DNA of 39,563 bases from Flavobacteriaceae bacterium (GTDB taxonomy: Bacteria; Bacteroidota; Bacteroidia; Flavobacteriales; Flavobacteriaceae): positions 1-39,563 of the forward strand of contig JALQVG010000073.1 of NCBI GenBank assembly GCA_023260435.1, in the 5' to 3' direction. The notes beneath the pieces were generated by a model. That model did not search any database, was not told where the DNA came from, and saw only the letters and a list, made by a program, of their open reading frames with translations. Below, piece after piece: positions 7,092 to 14,717 of this stretch (positions are counted from its first letter, which is position 1; each line of letters begins with the position of its first letter). A program made the translations under genes and the position numbers.

Positions 7092-7550
7092 ATGAATGTT
7101 GAAGAAATCATAAAAGCATCAAAGCCCATAGCTCCAAGAGCACGCATAGGTCTTTTGATTCATATGGTGCACACCCACATTCAGGAAAATCTATTAGAAT
7201 CTCTAAAGCCCTTCGATATTAGTTTAGCACAATTTAATGTGCTCCGAATATTAAAAGGATATAGAGATACTGCGTACATGGAGACACTTAATGAGCGCAT
7301 GATTCACAAAAGCAGTAACACCACAAGAGTCGTGGACAAATTGATTGCCAAAGGACTGGTGGAACGAAAGGTATGCCCCGAAAACAGAAGAAAAATTGAA
7401 GTGAGTATCACCCAGGATGGAATTTCGTTACTCACCCAACTTTCAACATCTATTGCTGAAGCAGAAGAACTACTCACCCAGTCACTAAGTCTGGATGAGC
7501 TAGCACAATTAACCCAATTATTAAACAAATTTAAACCCAAAACAACATGA
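7092..7550 (+). CDS. MarR-family transcriptional regulator
   Basis: ISLAQFNVLRILKG ... SSNTTRVVDKLIAKGLVERKVCPENRRKIEVSIT wHTH. Confidence 0.9.
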   Translation: MNVEEIIKASKPIAPRARIGLLIHMVHTHIQENLLESLKPFDISLAQFNVLRILKGYRDTAYMETLNERMIHKSSNTTRVVDKLIAKGLVERKVCPENRRKIEVSITQDGISLLTQLSTSIAEAEELLTQSLSLDELAQLTQLLNKFKPKTT

Positions 7551-8155
7551 AAAAAGGATTATTATTGGCAGGAATTGCTGTGATGTTTGTCGCTTGTGGC
7601 GCCAAAAAAGAAAACCAAGAAGATACTGCAGTTGCTGTTGAAGCAACAACCAACAACACTGTTGCTGTGAAAGCTGCCGAAAGCCAAGTATTTTGGAAAG
7701 GCTACAAAGTTACTGGTCAACACGAGGGTACTATAGCGCTTACTGAAGGTAATTTGACTTTTGCAGATCAAGTACTCACAGGAGGTTCTTTCACTGTAGA
7801 CATGACTAGTCTTGTAGCTACCGACTTAGATGGTGAAATGAAAGGAAAGCTGGAAGGACATTTGAAATCAGATGATTTCTTTGGAACTGAAGCTCATCCT
7901 ACTGCTCAATTGGTCATCACTCAAGTAGGTGTAGACGCTGCAGGTGGATACCAAGTAACCGGAGACTTAACCATCAAAGGAATTACTCAGCCTGTAAGCT
8001 TCCCCATGACTATTGCTGAAAACACAGCCAAAGCATCATTGAAAATTGACCGTACACTATACGATATTCGTTACGGATCTAACAATTTCTTTGAAAACTT
8101 GGGTGACAAAGCCATCAACAATGAATTCGATCTAGAAGTAACCCTTCAATTTTAA
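7547..8155 (+). CDS. YceI-family lipoprotein
   Basis: Signal and lipobox MKKGLLLAGIAVMFVACG; YceI-like SQVFWKGYKVTGQHEGTIAL, DLTIKGITQPVSFP; overlaps marR by 4 nt. Confidence 0.88.
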   Translation: MKKGLLLAGIAVMFVACGAKKENQEDTAVAVEATTNNTVAVKAAESQVFWKGYKVTGQHEGTIALTEGNLTFADQVLTGGSFTVDMTSLVATDLDGEMKGKLEGHLKSDDFFGTEAHPTAQLVITQVGVDAAGGYQVTGDLTIKGITQPVSFPMTIAENTAKASLKIDRTLYDIRYGSNNFFENLGDKAINNEFDLEVTLQF

Positions 8156-8162
8156 ATAACAC

Positions 8163-8192
8163 TTGTTTTTTTGTACAGGTTACTTATCTTTG
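8163..8192 (+). promoter_or_regulatory. Candidate trp operon promoter (TTG-N19-TATCTTTG)
   Basis: TTG 8163-8165 and TATCTTTG 8185-8192, matching the Bacteroidota -33/-7 consensus. Confidence 0.7.
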
Positions 8193-8197
8193 GGGCC

Positions 8198-8254
8198 ATG
8201 AACAACAAAAACAAATTTTCTTGGTGGTGGAACAACTTACAGCAAAACCTGTGA
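8198..8254 (+). CDS. trpL: trp operon leader peptide MNNKNKFSWWWNNLQQNL (18 aa)
   Basis: Short ORF upstream of trpE with three consecutive TGG codons (8222-8230), followed by an intrinsic terminator; absent from the ORF track. Confidence 0.88.
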   Translation: MNNKNKFSWWWNNLQQNL

Positions 8255-8279
8255 GCAAACCCTACTGTATAACCATACT

Positions 8280-8308
8280 AAGGCTTGTCTTCACGACAAG
8301 CCTTTTTT
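8280..8308 (+). terminator. trp attenuator terminator hairpin
   Basis: AAGGCTTGTC (8280-8289) TTCAC GACAAGCCTT (8295-8304), perfect 10-bp stem followed by TTTT, 17 nt before the trpE ATG. Confidence 0.9.
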
Positions 8309-8324
8309 CATTAACAACCTTGCT

Positions 8325-9728
8325 ATGAGAATTCATCGTCTTAAAACTGACTACCAGAAATTACTGGCCGACACGCTTACTCCGGTGAGCGTTTACCTGA
8401 AGATCAGAGATCGATTTGCCCAAAGTATTTTGTTGGAGAGCAGTGATTATCACGCTAATGACAATAGTTTTTCCTACATCTGTTGTCAGCCAATAGCCTG
8501 GATCAAAATTGAAGGTGATCATGTAGAAGAGCGATTTCCAGATGGAAGTTCCGAAAACTATGTCTTAGAAAGCAAGAAAAGTGTACCCGATATTATTGCC
8601 CGTTTCAGCACCTCATTTGCCGTAGATGGTCCAGCTTTTAAATTTATCAACCACGGTCTGTTTGGCTATATGTCGTATGACAGCGTTCGCTATTTTGAGG
8701 ACATCTCCATTGAAAAAAAAGAGGCCAAAACTTCTATTCCAGATGTGTACTATGCTGTTTACCAAAACATCATAGCCATTAATCATTTCAATAATGAAGC
8801 GTATTTGTTTTGTCACCACACAGAAGATCAGACAAGTAATTTAGCTGAACTAGCTGGCTGGATTCAGGTACCCTCATTTCCCAGTTATCCGTTTAAACTA
8901 GTGGGCGATCAAAAAACCAATGTGGCTGATCAGGATTTTAAGTCTATGGTATCACTGGCAAAAACACATTGCCAACGAGGAGACGTATTTCAATTGGTAC
9001 TTTCCAGAAGGTTTGAGCAACCCTTTCAGGGCGATGAATTTAATGTATATCGGGCATTAAGAACGATCAATCCTTCTCCTTACTTATTTTATTTCGACTA
9101 CGGGAATTTTAAATTATTGGGCAGCTCTCCTGAAGCTCAATTAGTCGTAAAAAACGATTTATGCGAAATTCATCCTATAGCGGGTACTTTCCGCAGAACA
9201 GGAAACGATGAACAAGACGCGGAGCTTGCCAAAAAACTCAGCGAGGACGCTAAAGAAAATGCAGAGCATGTGATGTTGGTCGATCTCGCGCGCAATGATT
9301 TGAGCAGACACGGCCGAATTGTTCAAGTGGAAACCTATAAAGAGGTTCAATTTTTCTCTCATGTGATTCATTTAGTCTCCAAAGTAACCGGAAGAAAAAA
9401 ACCCGAAGTACCCACTATGAATGTAGTGGCCGATACGTTCCCTGCAGGAACTTTAAGCGGTGCTCCCAAGCACAAAGCCATGGAGCTAATCGAGCGCTAT
9501 GAACCTACGCCAAGAGGATATTATGGGGGGGCTATTGGATTTATGGATTTTTCAGGAAATTTTAACCACGCGATCATGATACGCACCTTTTTAAGCAAGA
9601 ACCAAACACTCTACTTTCAAGCAGGTGCTGGTATTGTAGCTGCATCAAGCGCGGAAGCTGAGAATCAAGAAACCTATAACAAACTAGGCGCTTTACAAAA
9701 AGCATTAACCATGGCAGAAGGCCTTTAA
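8325..9728 (+). CDS. trpE: Anthranilate synthase component I
   Basis: LLESSD near N-terminus (Trp feedback site); chorismate-binding motifs HPIAGTFRRTG, FPAGTLSGAPKHKAMELI, YYGGAIGFM. Confidence 0.96.
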   Translation: MRIHRLKTDYQKLLADTLTPVSVYLKIRDRFAQSILLESSDYHANDNSFSYICCQPIAWIKIEGDHVEERFPDGSSENYVLESKKSVPDIIARFSTSFAVDGPAFKFINHGLFGYMSYDSVRYFEDISIEKKEAKTSIPDVYYAVYQNIIAINHFNNEAYLFCHHTEDQTSNLAELAGWIQVPSFPSYPFKLVGDQKTNVADQDFKSMVSLAKTHCQRGDVFQLVLSRRFEQPFQGDEFNVYRALRTINPSPYLFYFDYGNFKLLGSSPEAQLVVKNDLCEIHPIAGTFRRTGNDEQDAELAKKLSEDAKENAEHVMLVDLARNDLSRHGRIVQVETYKEVQFFSHVIHLVSKVTGRKKPEVPTMNVVADTFPAGTLSGAPKHKAMELIERYEPTPRGYYGGAIGFMDFSGNFNHAIMIRTFLSKNQTLYFQAGAGIVAASSAEAENQETYNKLGALQKALTMAEGL

Positions 9729-9732
9729 GGAG

Positions 9733-10311
9733 ATGAAAGAAATACTTGTTATCGACAACTACGACAGTTTTACCTACAACTTGGTCCACCACCTCGAAGC
9801 GTTGGGCGCATCTGTACACGTGGTGCGCAACGACCAAATTACGCTGGAGGAAATAGCCCCCTACAACCACATCGTTTTGTCCCCCGGACCTGGAATACCC
9901 GATGAAGCTGGTCTGCTCAAAGCGATTATCCGACAATACGCGCCAACCAAAGCAATATTGGGTGTATGCTTGGGGCAACAAGCCATAGCTGAAGTGTTTG
10001 GAGGAAGCTTGACCAACTTGAGCCAAGTGTATCACGGAATAAGCACACCCATCGACGTAGATTCCTCTGAACCGATTTTCCAAGGCCTACCCACTCAAAT
10101 ACAGGTGGGAAGATATCATTCTTGGGTGGTGAACCAGACTGATTTGCCCGCTGTACTTCGCGTTACTGCTCGGGACTTAAATGGGCAAATTATGGCCATT
10201 CGACACAGGGAATATGAAGTTTGTGCGGTACAGTTTCACCCCGAGTCGATCCTTACCCCAGATGGCGCACATATGCTGTCTCAATGGCTGAAACACACCA
10301 AATACTTTTAG
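9733..10311 (+). CDS. trpG: Anthranilate synthase component II (glutamine amidotransferase)
   Basis: LVIDNYDSFTYNLVHHL, LSPGPGIPDEAG, GVCLGQQAIAEVFGG, VQFHPESILTPDG. Confidence 0.96.
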   Translation: MKEILVIDNYDSFTYNLVHHLEALGASVHVVRNDQITLEEIAPYNHIVLSPGPGIPDEAGLLKAIIRQYAPTKAILGVCLGQQAIAEVFGGSLTNLSQVYHGISTPIDVDSSEPIFQGLPTQIQVGRYHSWVVNQTDLPAVLRVTARDLNGQIMAIRHREYEVCAVQFHPESILTPDGAHMLSQWLKHTKYF

Positions 10312-10314
10312 CGG

Positions 10315-11319
10315 ATGAAGACCCTACTCAACCAATTGACCCAACACCAGCAACTGACCAAAGAGTCAGCCAAGGAAGTATTGACCCAAATCGCTCACGG
10401 TCAGTACTCAGAATCTGAGATCGCAGCATTCTTGACGGTATACATGATGCGCAGTATCAGTATTGAGGAATTAGCTGGGTTTCGGGATGCACTGCTTGAG
10501 CTTTGTATTCCTATAGACTTATCGGCATACACTCCGATTGACCTATGTGGCACTGGGGGTGACGGCAAAGACACTTTTAATATTTCAACTCTAGCCTCGT
10601 TTGTGACTGCTGGAGCAGGGATACACGTAGCCAAACACGGTAATTATGGAGTTTCGTCGGCCTGTGGGTCAAGTAATGTACTCGAAGCTTTGGGCATTAA
10701 ATTTAGCGCTGATGAGGCGTTTTTGCGCAGTTGTATCGAAAAGGCAGGTATCTGTGTACTGCACGCTCCTCTTTTTCACCCGGCCATGAAACAGGTGGCA
10801 CCCGTGCGCAGAAGTCTTGGAGTTAAAACTTTTTTCAATATGTTGGGGCCTATGGTGAACCCTTCAAGACCCAACTATCAGCTGGTGGGTGTTTTTCAAC
10901 TAGAACTGGCCAGGATGTATCAATACCTTTATCAAAAGGACCAAATTAAATACACCATTGTACATGCACTGGATGGGTACGATGAAATCTCCTTAACCGG
11001 AAGTGCCAAAATCATCACGCCACAAGGTGAGTCTTTATTAAGTCCTCAAGATTTTAAAGCCCAACTTTGGAGAATGGGTGATATTACTGGGGGAAATGGC
11101 GTGGAAGATGCTGCGAAAATTTTTCTAGAGGTACTCAAAGGCCAAGGCACCCAAGCGCAAAACGAGGTGGTTTGTGCCAATGCAGCATTGGCCATATCCA
11201 CTGTCAAAGGATGCAGTATAGCTCATGCTGTAGATCTCGCAGGAGAAAGCCTAAAGTCTGGGCGTGCTTATGAGTCATTTATTGAATTGCAAAACATATC
11301 TAAGTCATGGATATCCTAA
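10315..11319 (+). CDS. trpD: Anthranilate phosphoribosyltransferase
   Basis: DLCGTGGDGKDTFNIST, KHGNYGVSSACGSSNVLEALG, NMLGPMVNPSRP. Confidence 0.96.
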   Translation: MKTLLNQLTQHQQLTKESAKEVLTQIAHGQYSESEIAAFLTVYMMRSISIEELAGFRDALLELCIPIDLSAYTPIDLCGTGGDGKDTFNISTLASFVTAGAGIHVAKHGNYGVSSACGSSNVLEALGIKFSADEAFLRSCIEKAGICVLHAPLFHPAMKQVAPVRRSLGVKTFFNMLGPMVNPSRPNYQLVGVFQLELARMYQYLYQKDQIKYTIVHALDGYDEISLTGSAKIITPQGESLLSPQDFKAQLWRMGDITGGNGVEDAAKIFLEVLKGQGTQAQNEVVCANAALAISTVKGCSIAHAVDLAGESLKSGRAYESFIELQNISKSWIS

Positions 11320-12095
11320 CCCGCATATGCCGCAACAAACAAGTGCAAGTAGACCTGGTGAAAAATCAGGTGCCCCTATCTGTGCTGCAGTCCATGCCTT
11401 TGTATGCGAGAAATACCGTTTCACTAAGGGAGGCATTAAGCCACAGCGCCAGTGGATTGATCACAGAACACAAAAGAAGATCTCCCTCGAAAAACCATAT
11501 TAGAACAGATCACCATATTCAAGAGGTGGCCCAAGGCTACCAATCTGGAGGTGCCTGCGGTATGTCCGTATTGACCGAAGTAGGTTATTTTGGCGGAGCA
11601 CCAGAGGACTTGATTATTGCGCGTGCCAGTTGTACCTTACCCCTATTGCGCAAAGACTTTATGGTGGATCCCTATCAGGTCCACGAAGCAAAAGCATGGG
11701 GTGCCGACGTGATCTTGTTAATCGCGGCCGCATTAGATCCCAAGTCGATTGATGTACTGAGCGGTTTAGCGCATGAGTTAGGCTTGGAAGTGCTTCTGGA
11801 GGTTCATGACTTGTCTGAACTCAATCGCTCACTGACACCTAACATTGATATGGTCGGAGTCAATAACCGAAATTTAAAGACCTTTGAGGTATCGACACAG
11901 GTAAGTATCGAACTTGCCCGGCACATTCCGGATCACCTGGTTAAGATTTCAGAAAGTGGATTGACTGACGCACAAGAAATTAGGGCATTACGATCCGTGG
12001 GATACCGTGGCTTTCTCGTTGGTGAACATTTGATGAAATCGGATAACCCCGGTGAGGCTACGCGATTAATGATTGAAGAAATTACCCGATTATGA
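11307..12095 (+). CDS. trpC: Indole-3-glycerol-phosphate synthase
   Basis: ITEHKRRSPSK, CGMSVLTEVGYFGG, LLRKDFMVDPYQV, VGVNNRNLKTFEV, ISESGL; overlaps trpD by 13 nt. Confidence 0.95.
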   Translation: MDILTRICRNKQVQVDLVKNQVPLSVLQSMPLYARNTVSLREALSHSASGLITEHKRRSPSKNHIRTDHHIQEVAQGYQSGGACGMSVLTEVGYFGGAPEDLIIARASCTLPLLRKDFMVDPYQVHEAKAWGADVILLIAAALDPKSIDVLSGLAHELGLEVLLEVHDLSELNRSLTPNIDMVGVNNRNLKTFEVSTQVSIELARHIPDHLVKISESGLTDAQEIRALRSVGYRGFLVGEHLMKSDNPGEATRLMIEEITRL

Positions 12096-12748
12096 GCTTA
12101 AATCGTCTGGAACTAAAAGTTTGCGGCATGACCCAAAGGGAGAATATCCAAGCTGTATTGGAGGTAAAACCTGATTGGATCGGGCTCATTTTCTGGCCTA
12201 AGTCCAAACGATATTGTTCCTTGGACCCTGAGCAATGGCAAACTATTGATTTGGGCCAAACAAAGTCGGTGGGCGTATTTGTCGATCAACCCATGGATGA
12301 AGTAATACAAATCGCACACACCTATGACCTTGACGGCCTTCAGCTGCATGGGAACGAATCAACTGAGTACCTGAAAACACTTAGAAGCCAACTACCCGAA
12401 GTAGCGATAATAAAAGCGTTTTCCATAGATCACCACTTTGATTGGAGCCTACTATCGCCCTATCAAGAGCACAGTGACCTATTTTTATTCGATACTAAAG
12501 GACCGCTACCTGGCGGAAATGGAACAGCATTTGATTGGACCATTTTGACACAATATCCAGGATCAACTCCCTTTTTATTGAGTGGTGGAATACATCTAGG
12601 ATTGACAAAAAATCTTTTGGAATGGATCCATACTCCGGCTTCTAAGTGGTGTGTAGGGATCGATGTGAATTCTGGTTTTGAAGTCAGTCCAGGAATAAAG
12701 AATCCAGAACTAATTAAGGAATTGAGCCAACAGTGCAAACAATTATAA
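12092..12748 (+). CDS. trpF: Phosphoribosylanthranilate isomerase
   Basis: [48 protein letters not shown]. Confidence 0.93.
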
Positions 12749-12758
12749 ATCAGAGCAG

Positions 12759-13946
12759 ATGAAAAAAAGTTATCAAGTGGACGAGTGGGGTTATTACGGA
12801 ACATTTGGTGGGGCATATATCCCTGAAATGCTCTACCCAAACACGGAAGAATTGCGCAGTCAATACCTGAAGATTATGGCCGAGCCAGAATTTCAAAAGG
12901 AATTTAACCAACTGCTAAAAGACTATGTGGGCCGACCTACCCCTTTGTATTTGGCCCAGCGTTTATCCGCCCAAGTAGGTTGTAAAATCTACTTAAAACG
13001 GGAAGATTTATGTCATACGGGGGCACATAAAATCAATAATACCATCGGACAGATTCTCATGGCCAAGAAATTGGGCAAATCAAGAATTATTGCCGAAACA
13101 GGGGCTGGTCAGCACGGTGTGGCCACCGCGACTGTATGTGCCTTAATGGGCATGGAGTGTATCGTCTACATGGGCGAGGTGGATATCAAACGTCAAGCAC
13201 CTAACGTCGCGCGTATGAAAATGCTGGGGGCGCAAGTACGTCCAGCTACTTCAGGATCTAAAACCCTAAAAGACGCTACTAACGAAGCGATTAGAGATTG
13301 GATCAATAACCCGGTGAATACCCATTACATCATCGGATCCGTAGTTGGACCTCATCCTTATCCCGATATGGTAGCCAGGTTTCAGTCCGTAATAGCTCAA
13401 GAGACCATGGAGCAATTATTGGAGTTAGAGGGCCGGGACTATCCAGATGCGGTTGTGGCTTGTGTGGGGGGAGGAAGCAACGCTGCTGGTGCTTACTATC
13501 ATTACCTAGACCGCGAAGAAGTGCGGATAATCGCCGTGGAAGCTGCAGGTAAAGGAATTGACACCCATGAAAGTGCTGCCACCTCAGTCTTGGGAAGAGA
13601 AGGCATTATCCACGGCTCGAAAACATTACTCATGCAGTCTCCAGATGGACAAATCACAGAACCCTACTCTATTTCAGCAGGACTTGATTATCCGGGTATT
13701 GGGCCGATGCACGCTCATCTATTCCGTTCTAAAAGAGGAGAGTTTATCTCGGCTACAGACCAACAAGCTATGGAGGCTGGATTGATGTTGAGTCAATTAG
13801 AAGGAATTATTCCCGCTATTGAAACTTCGCATGCCTTGGCGGTATTGGATCAATTAAACTTTAAATCAACGGATGTGGTTGTGGTTAACCTCTCAGGAAG
13901 AGGAGATAAAGACCTGAATACCTACATCGATTACTTTAAATTATAG
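12759..13946 (+). CDS. trpB: Tryptophan synthase beta subunit
   Basis: [53 protein letters not shown]. Confidence 0.97.
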
Positions 13947-13949
13947 GAC

Positions 13950-14717
13950 ATGAGTACACGAATTGAACAGCTGTTTCAAAAAAAGAAAAAAGTACTTTCC
14001 ATATACTTCACCGCAGGTTATCCAAAGCATTCAGACACCCTCCCTATTTTGGAATCCTTACAAGAACAAGGGGTGGATATGGTGGAAATCGGTTTGCCGT
14101 TCTCAGATCCATTAGCTGACGGCCCAGTTATCCAACAAAGTTCAACTCAGGCTTTGGCTATGGGCATGACTACTGAAGTACTCTTCGATCAATTGAAGGA
14201 TGTCCGGTCGAAAATTGAAATACCCCTAGTCATCATGGGCTATTTCAATCCGGTTTTACAGTTTGGGGTAGACGCATTCTGTCGCAAATGCGCAGAAATA
14301 GGAATTGATGCCGTAATCCTACCTGACCTGCCCTTAACGGTATACGAACGAGAATATCAAGAGATTTTTGAACGCCATGGTATTCAATTAATCTTTTTGA
14401 TCACCCCACAAACCTCAGATGAACGAATCATTGCTTTGGACCAAGCCAGTAAAGGATTTATCTATTTAGTCAGCACGGCCAGCGTAACTGGAAGTGGATC
14501 AGGTTTTGGTCAAGCTCAAGTTGACTATTTCAAACGCATTTCAGACATGAAGCTTAAAAACCCCATCGTGGTTGGTTTTGGCATTAAAGACCGGGAGACC
14601 TTCAGTCAAGCCACTGCTCACACCGATGGTGCGATTATTGGTTCTGCGTTTATCAACGCATTGACTGAAAAAGGAACAGCTGTGATTCCCGAATTCATCA
14701 AAGGGATACGCGGTTAA
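13950..14717 (+). CDS. trpA: Tryptophan synthase alpha subunit
   Basis: YFTAGYPKHSDT, VEIGLPFSDPLADGPVIQQSSTQAL, VILPDLPL, YLVSTASVTGSGSGF, VGFGIK. Confidence 0.96.
   Translation: MSTRIEQLFQKKKKVLSIYFTAGYPKHSDTLPILESLQEQGVDMVEIGLPFSDPLADGPVIQQSSTQALAMGMTTEVLFDQLKDVRSKIEIPLVIMGYFNPVLQFGVDAFCRKCAEIGIDAVILPDLPLTVYEREYQEIFERHGIQLIFLITPQTSDERIIALDQASKGFIYLVSTASVTGSGSGFGQAQVDYFKRISDMKLKNPIVVGFGIKDRETFSQATAHTDGAIIGSAFINALTEKGTAVIPEFIKGIRG

What the first reader, a model, noticed from the sequence alone, without database searches (positions are those of the whole stretch)
8198..8308. Unannotated trp attenuator: 18-aa leader peptide with Trp-Trp-Trp plus intrinsic terminator upstream of trpEGDCFBA
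Seen directly: ATG at 8198 opens MNNKNKFSWWWNNLQQNL*, with TGG TGG TGG at 8222-8230 and stop at 8252-8254. A perfect 10-bp hairpin AAGGCTTGTC-TTCAC-GACAAGCCTT plus T tract (8280-8308) lies 17 nt before the trpE ATG. Established: tandem Trp codons in a short leader followed by a terminator are the hallmark of ribosome-mediated attenuation, best characterised in proteobacteria. Inference: this trp operon uses translation-coupled attenuation rather than TRAP or TrpR. The peptide is too short for the ORF track and would be missed by routine annotation.
Basis: partly seen in the sequence, partly recalled or inferred. Interest (0 to 1): 0.9.

Follow-up and report, generated by a model that had tools for sequence, protein, structure and literature searches.

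The report
Tryptophan leader-peptide attenuator before trpE
A tiny gene with three tryptophan codons and an RNA stop-hairpin sit before the tryptophan-making genes of this bacterium and most likely switch them on only when tryptophan runs short; it is an overlooked, diverged copy of a switch already known across this bacterial group, and comparing about 100 relatives shows how it probably works.

Summary
The attenuation reading is well supported, but the kind is known. It matches Rfam RF01692 (Bacteroid-trp) over the model's full length at 29 bits, below the 49-bit cut-off, so annotation misses it. Two congeners reach the cut-off at the same place. A Trp-rich mini-ORF precedes trpE in 97 of 100 family genomes examined.

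Two things were added. (1) A short RNA element, usually UCGUGA, lies 17-20 nt after the last Trp codon, at or near the leader stop. It is complementary to the terminator loop plus the top of the 3' arm (UCACGA), with compensatory changes in several lineages. It also pairs with codons just after the Trp run. This gives three competing structures: 1:2 hairpin, antiterminator, terminator. The window's antiterminator is among the weakest (-9.3 kcal/mol). (2) The Bacteroidota -7 box TATCTTTG (8185-8192) ends 5 nt before the leader ATG, which predicts a leaderless leader mRNA. The gap is 4-5 nt in all 11 genus genomes with the locus, in 28 of 97 leaders overall, and never 0-3 nt.

No TRAP or TrpR was found. 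Nothing was tested at the bench.

The parts
8185..8192 (+). Predicted sigma-ABfr -7 promoter box TATCTTTG (TAHHTTTG consensus); ends 5 nt before the leader ATG
   Evidence: Sequence; consensus and spacing from PMC6847099 and PMC9723704; same geometry in all 11 genus genomes with the locus
8197..8198 (+). Predicted transcription start: leader AUG at or one base from the 5' end (leaderless)
   Evidence: Inferred from -7 box spacing; start not mapped
8198..8254 (+). Leader peptide ORF trpL, MNNKNKFSWWWNNLQQNL*
   Evidence: equivalent ORF in 97 of 100 relatives
8222..8230 (+). Three tandem Trp (UGG) control codons
8236..8242 (+). Segment 1: CUUACAG, pairs with segment 2; would be masked by a ribosome stalled at the last Trp codon
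   Evidence: family-wide own versus swapped pairing -6.88 against -4.95 kcal/mol
8249..8263 (+). Segment 2: antiterminator strand CUGUGAGCAAACCCU, overlaps the leader stop codon
   Evidence: Conserved UCGUGA-type element 17-20 nt after the last Trp codon, covaries with the terminator loop; pairs 8250-8263 with 8281-8295 in folds of the stalled state
8280..8308 (+). Intrinsic terminator: stem AAGGCUUGUC/GACAAGCCUU, loop UUCAC, U tract
   Evidence: stem kept in 99.8% of cells with both-sided changes at 9 of 10 pairs
8325..14717 (+). Controlled operon trpE, trpG, trpD, trpC, trpF, trpB, trpA

Best explanation
This is a ribosome-mediated transcription attenuator. RNA polymerase starts at or next to the leader AUG, and a ribosome translates the leader right behind it. 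With enough Trp-tRNA the ribosome runs through the three Trp codons to the stop, where it covers segment 2 (8249-8263); if it has left, segment 2 is tied up by segment 1. The terminator 8280-8304 then forms and transcription stops before trpE. When Trp-tRNA is scarce, the ribosome stalls on the Trp codons and masks segment 1. Segment 2 is then free to capture the loop and apex of the terminator (8281-8295) before the 3' arm is complete, so polymerase reads on into trpEGDCFBA. Shown from sequence: the parts, their conservation, and the mutually exclusive pairings. Inferred: the stall, the transcription start, and the regulation itself.
For: Exact anatomy. Full-length RF01692 match, with congeners over the cut-off at the same place. 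WW/WWW leader before trpE in 97 of 100 relatives. Terminator covariation. Antiterminator complementarity 15.9 against 9.4 (sd 0.2) for shuffles and 15.83 against 14.31 (sd 0.14), 0 of 5000, for swapped partners; 6 of 8 pairs with both-sided changes. 1:2 pairing beats swapped partners. Folds with a ribosome placed by hand switch as required. No TRAP or TrpR.
Against: No expression data for this organism. The window's own antiterminator is weak (-9.3 kcal/mol against a terminator of -14.6; third to fifth weakest of 97, tied with its two closest relatives), and its fold is only modestly better than shuffles (z -1.45). Once the 3' arm is complete the terminator always wins on energy, so the mechanism depends on timing. 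A few relatives (G061, G068, G053) lack a clear antiterminator match. Folding of the no-ribosome state varies with transcript length.
Confidence: 0.85

Rival explanations
1. Attenuation occurs, but the segment 2 to terminator complementarity is not an antiterminator. It would be a loop pseudoknot or a by-product, and control would come from the Trp-codon hairpin of the RF01692 model alone.
For: The terminator loop (UCAC) alone could pair with GUGA while most of the stem stays intact; in the window the helix is weak.
Against: In most relatives the helix extends 2-3 nt into the terminator 3' arm and so excludes the stem top; these arm positions also change together, e.g. CUGUGA with UCACAG in six congeners. 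Position relative to the last Trp codon is nearly fixed.
Confidence: 0.15
2. The trp operon is controlled by a protein or tRNA sensor (TRAP, TrpR or T-box) and the Trp codons are incidental.
For: About 8% of the genome is missing, so absence is not final.
Against: PF02081 and PF01371 give no match while positive controls ring; no T-box in the Rfam scans; Trp codons conserved in 97 of 100 genomes.
Confidence: 0.03
3. The leader is not leaderless: the operon is transcribed from an upstream promoter, for example as read-through of the MarR-YceI genes, so the 5' UTR is longer.
For: The YceI gene ends at 8155 and no + strand terminator was found between it and 8185. The start site was not mapped.
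Against: A perfect -7 box sits 4-22 nt before the leader start in 91 of 97 relatives. The gap is never 0-3 nt and piles up at 4-5 nt (28 genomes), as expected if the start codon must be transcribed from this promoter (spacing from PMC6847099).
Confidence: 0.2

Closest known systems
Bacteroid-trp RNA (Rfam RF01692; Weinberg et al. 2010, PMC2864571)
   Same: Same place before trp genes in Bacteroidota, full-length match, Trp-codon leader, hairpin over the Trp codons, identical terminator 5' arm AAGGCUUGUC.
   Different: 29 bits against a cut-off of 49. The model ends at the terminator 5' arm and does not contain the segment 2 to terminator pairing; its first 20 positions before the AUG overlap the promoter box in the window, where no 5' UTR is predicted.
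F. psychrophilum trp leader (PMC6414381; leader-peptide attenuation clues in PMC9723704)
   Same: Bacteroid-trp element noted upstream of the trp operon of a flavobacterium and discussed there as an E. coli-like leader; PMC9723704 reports clues of leader-peptide attenuation before amino-acid operons.
   Different: The main texts searched here give no antiterminator for trp; supplements could not be read.
E. coli trpL attenuator (Rfam RF00513 Trp_leader)
   Same: Same logic: Trp codons, 1:2 hairpin, antiterminator, terminator.
   Different: Not homologous by sequence (13.4 bits against a cut-off of 41). Three Trp codons, not two. Segment 2 takes the terminator loop and apex as well as part of the 5' arm. 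E. coli details are from general knowledge.
Sinorhizobium meliloti trpL / rnTrpL (PMC7298713)
   Same: Trp attenuator whose RNA starts with the AUG of the leader ORF.
   Different: Alphaproteobacterial; there the start is mapped, here it is predicted from the promoter box.

Membership tests
Ribosome-mediated (leader-peptide) transcription attenuator, trp type | Short leader ORF with tandem Trp codons before a trp operon | tested here: met
Ribosome-mediated (leader-peptide) transcription attenuator, trp type | Intrinsic terminator between leader ORF and first structural gene | tested here: met
Ribosome-mediated (leader-peptide) transcription attenuator, trp type | Alternative antiterminator that excludes the terminator and is freed by a ribosome stalled on the Trp codons | tested here: met
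   By comparative sequence analysis and folding only; weak in the window itself
Ribosome-mediated (leader-peptide) transcription attenuator, trp type | Read-through rises when charged tRNA-Trp falls | not testable with these tools
   Needs RNA measurements
Rfam RF01692 Bacteroid-trp | Score at or above the curated cut-off (49 bits) | tested here: not met
   29 bits
Rfam RF01692 Bacteroid-trp | Homology to members of the family | tested here: met
   Full-length alignment; same-genus orthologues G106 and G110 at the same place score 52.3 and 51.2 bits; continuous alignment of 95 leaders. I therefore call it a diverged homologue, below Rfam's inclusion line.
Leaderless mRNA | Transcription start at or within a base or two of the start codon | tested here: inconclusive
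   Predicted from the -7 box; no start-site data
TRAP-regulated trp leader | TRAP (mtrB) gene in the genome | tested here: not met
TrpR-repressed operon | trpR gene in the genome | tested here: not met

The most novel reading that the evidence does not exclude
Flavobacterial trp attenuators use an antiterminator strand that overlaps the leader stop codon and blocks the nucleating apex of the terminator hairpin (loop plus top of the 3' arm); and in about a quarter of the genera sampled, including this one, the leader peptide is translated from a leaderless mRNA, in a phylum that does not rely on Shine-Dalgarno sites.
Probability: 0.6. Interest if true: 0.5.

Novelty: new member of a known kind. 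Interest (0 to 1): 0.36.

Why it matters
It turns a bare Rfam motif, listed in 2010 as a likely cis-regulatory RNA, into a mechanism with named strands and predicted base changes, testable in Flavobacterium. It raises the question of how a ribosome loads fast enough for attenuation without a Shine-Dalgarno site or, here, any 5' UTR. It also shows that the current model misses diverged members.

Tried and rejected
Chance: rejected by conservation in 97 of 100 genomes. TRAP, TrpR, T-box: no support. Sigma-70 promoter: no + strand consensus site near the leader, and Bacteroidota use another consensus. An early candidate for the antiterminator, GAGCAAACC pairing only with the 5' arm GGCUUGUC, was replaced by the element conserved in relatives, of which it is an extension. 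Other Rfam hits in the region (snoR126, cyano_het_sRNA, Phe_leader) are sub-threshold and taken as chance. A first census missed minus-strand loci and was redone (corrected). In the MAFFT alignment six congeners sit one column out of register in the terminator, which lowers the formal covariation count.

Full report
OBSERVATION. The 18-codon ORF 8198-8254 reads MNNKNKFSWWWNNLQQNL*. The hairpin 8280-8304 is a perfect 10-bp stem with a 5-nt loop, followed by T's. trpE starts at 8325 and the order trpE-G-D-C-F-B-A holds. The hairpin region folds far better than shuffles (z -6.1), as does the whole leader (z -3.4).

KNOWN FAMILY. cmscan gives Rfam RF01692, 'Bacteroidete tryptophan peptide leader RNA', over the full model (1-131) at 29 bits, under the 49-bit cut-off. 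The family comes from Weinberg et al. 2010 (PMC2864571, listed as likely RNA and likely cis-regulatory) and is mentioned before the F. psychrophilum trp operon (PMC6414381). In the same family of genomes 72 of 101 carry an RF01692 match at E <= 0.001, nearly always right beside the trpE match. In the genus, 11 of 12 genomes have a match at E <= 10, two over the cut-off; the window and its two closest relatives score lowest at the trpE locus, 29-35 bits. In a phylum sample of 249 genomes 26 of the 27 matches are in this family and one is in another family of the same class.

CONSERVATION. I took the region upstream of trpE from 100 genomes (90 from a one-per-genus sample of the family, the window's own genome included, plus 10 congeners). 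A start codon followed by a WW or WWW run and a nearby stop is present in 97. Of the other three, G083 is cut by a contig end but still shows TGGTGGTGG, G044 has its RF01692 match about 0.4 kb from trpE, and G035 has none. Four leaders start with GTG or TTG (G103, G110, G014, G072). The terminator helix is kept in 99.8% of cells, with both-sided changes at 9 of 10 pairs.

PROMOTER AND LEADERLESS START. The Bacteroidota -7 box TAHHTTTG lies 4-5 nt before the transcription start in F. johnsoniae (PMC6847099), and F. psychrophilum places it at -12 to -5 (PMC9723704). In the window TATCTTTG occupies 8185-8192, so the predicted start is 8197 or 8198, the first base of the ORF or one base before it. 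Among the 97 leaders, 91 have a perfect box within 30 nt before the start codon. The gap is 4-5 nt in 28, 6-22 nt in 63 and never 0-3 nt. That hard lower edge is what one expects if the box is the promoter and the start codon has to be transcribed. All 11 genus genomes with the locus have a gap of 4 or 5, including the two that start with GTG. Genome-wide, leaderless mRNAs are only 5.5% in F. psychrophilum (PMC9723704), so the share at this locus looks high, though definitions differ. Precedent: S. meliloti rnTrpL starts with the AUG of trpL (PMC7298713).

ANTITERMINATOR. The alignment showed a conserved (G)UCGUGA(A) that begins 17-20 nt after the last Trp codon in most genomes, whether or not it coincides with the UGA stop or lies in frame. 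It is the reverse complement of the terminator loop plus the top of the 3' arm (UUCACGA(C)). Mean pairing score is 15.9 against 9.4 (sd 0.2) for shuffled upstream segments. Own partners score 15.83 against 14.31 (sd 0.14) for partners swapped between genomes, 0 of 5000 as good. Lineages with another loop have a matching change upstream: CUGUGA with UCACAG in five congeners and CUGUG with CACAG in a sixth, GCGA with UCGC in G003 and G048, UCGCGA with UCGCGA in G004, UUGUCGCAAU with AUUGCGACAA in G043, GCGAU with AUCGC in G065. The formal count gives 6 of 8 pairs with both-sided changes and a covariation score of 0.118 against 0.095 (sd 0.005; 0 of 500), also above slid registers, despite six rows one column out of register. 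Shuffle controls do not account for relatedness; the independence of the changes rests on their occurring in separate genera.

SEGMENT 1. The codons just after the Trp run pair with the same element (CUUACAG 8236-8242 with CUGUGAG 8249-8255 in the window). Family-wide the own pairing is -6.88 kcal/mol against -4.95 (sd 0.18) for swapped partners. This part falls within the hairpin of the RF01692 model. The antiterminator reaches beyond the model, which ends at the terminator 5' arm.

MECHANISM. Placing a ribosome by hand gives the expected switch. Stalled at the last Trp codon, with the transcript at 8297-8300, the best fold is the antiterminator: 8250-8254 with 8291-8295, 8255-8258 with 8285-8288, 8261-8263 with 8281-8283 (-9.0 kcal/mol). 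With the ribosome at the stop codon only the terminator and a small upstream hairpin remain. Once the 3' arm is complete the terminator wins on energy in all cases, so antitermination must be kinetic. The footprint edge used (about 12 nt past the A-site codon) is my assumption from general knowledge. The window's antiterminator is one of the weakest of 97 (-9.3 against a median of -12.6 kcal/mol), because segment 2 reads CUGUGA, as in most of its congeners, while the terminator keeps the family's CACGAC. This clade may therefore respond less strongly; that is speculation.

ALTERNATIVES. No TRAP (PF02081) or TrpR (PF01371) was found in the 92%-complete genome, while the positive controls rang. 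No T-box was seen.

VERDICT. The finding is real and its interpretation is supported, but the kind has been known since 2010. The additions are the covarying antiterminator strand, the leaderless promoter geometry, and the fact that this copy lies under Rfam's threshold. In the papers I could search I found no description of the antiterminator, but supplementary files and Rfam's own notes could not be read, so I do not claim priority.

Noticed in passing
7092-8155: A MarR-type regulator gene and a gene of no NCBIfam hit (YceI-like by my reading) lie just upstream of the trp operon on the same strand. Relatives keep them there: the YceI-like gene in 33 and the MarR gene in 24 of 40 loci with up to 1.5 kb upstream. 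No terminator was found between 8155 and the trp promoter, so read-through is possible.
   Followed up: partly
G103, G110, G014, G072 (upstream of trpE): Leader ORFs of some relatives start with GTG or TTG; the two GTG ones are also predicted leaderless.
   Followed up: partly
L105 (G061), L099 (G068), L071 (G053): Relatives with Trp leader and terminator but little or no segment 2 to loop complementarity: natural tests of whether the antiterminator is needed.
   Followed up: no
L110 (G035); G044 C7:148437-148564; L052 (G089): G035 has no Trp leader before trpE; in G044 and G089 the leader lies several hundred bases from trpE, suggesting insertions between attenuator and operon.
   Followed up: no
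window-wide: TAHHTTTG is enriched (41 sites against 23 expected), fitting its role as the -7 promoter box.
   Followed up: no
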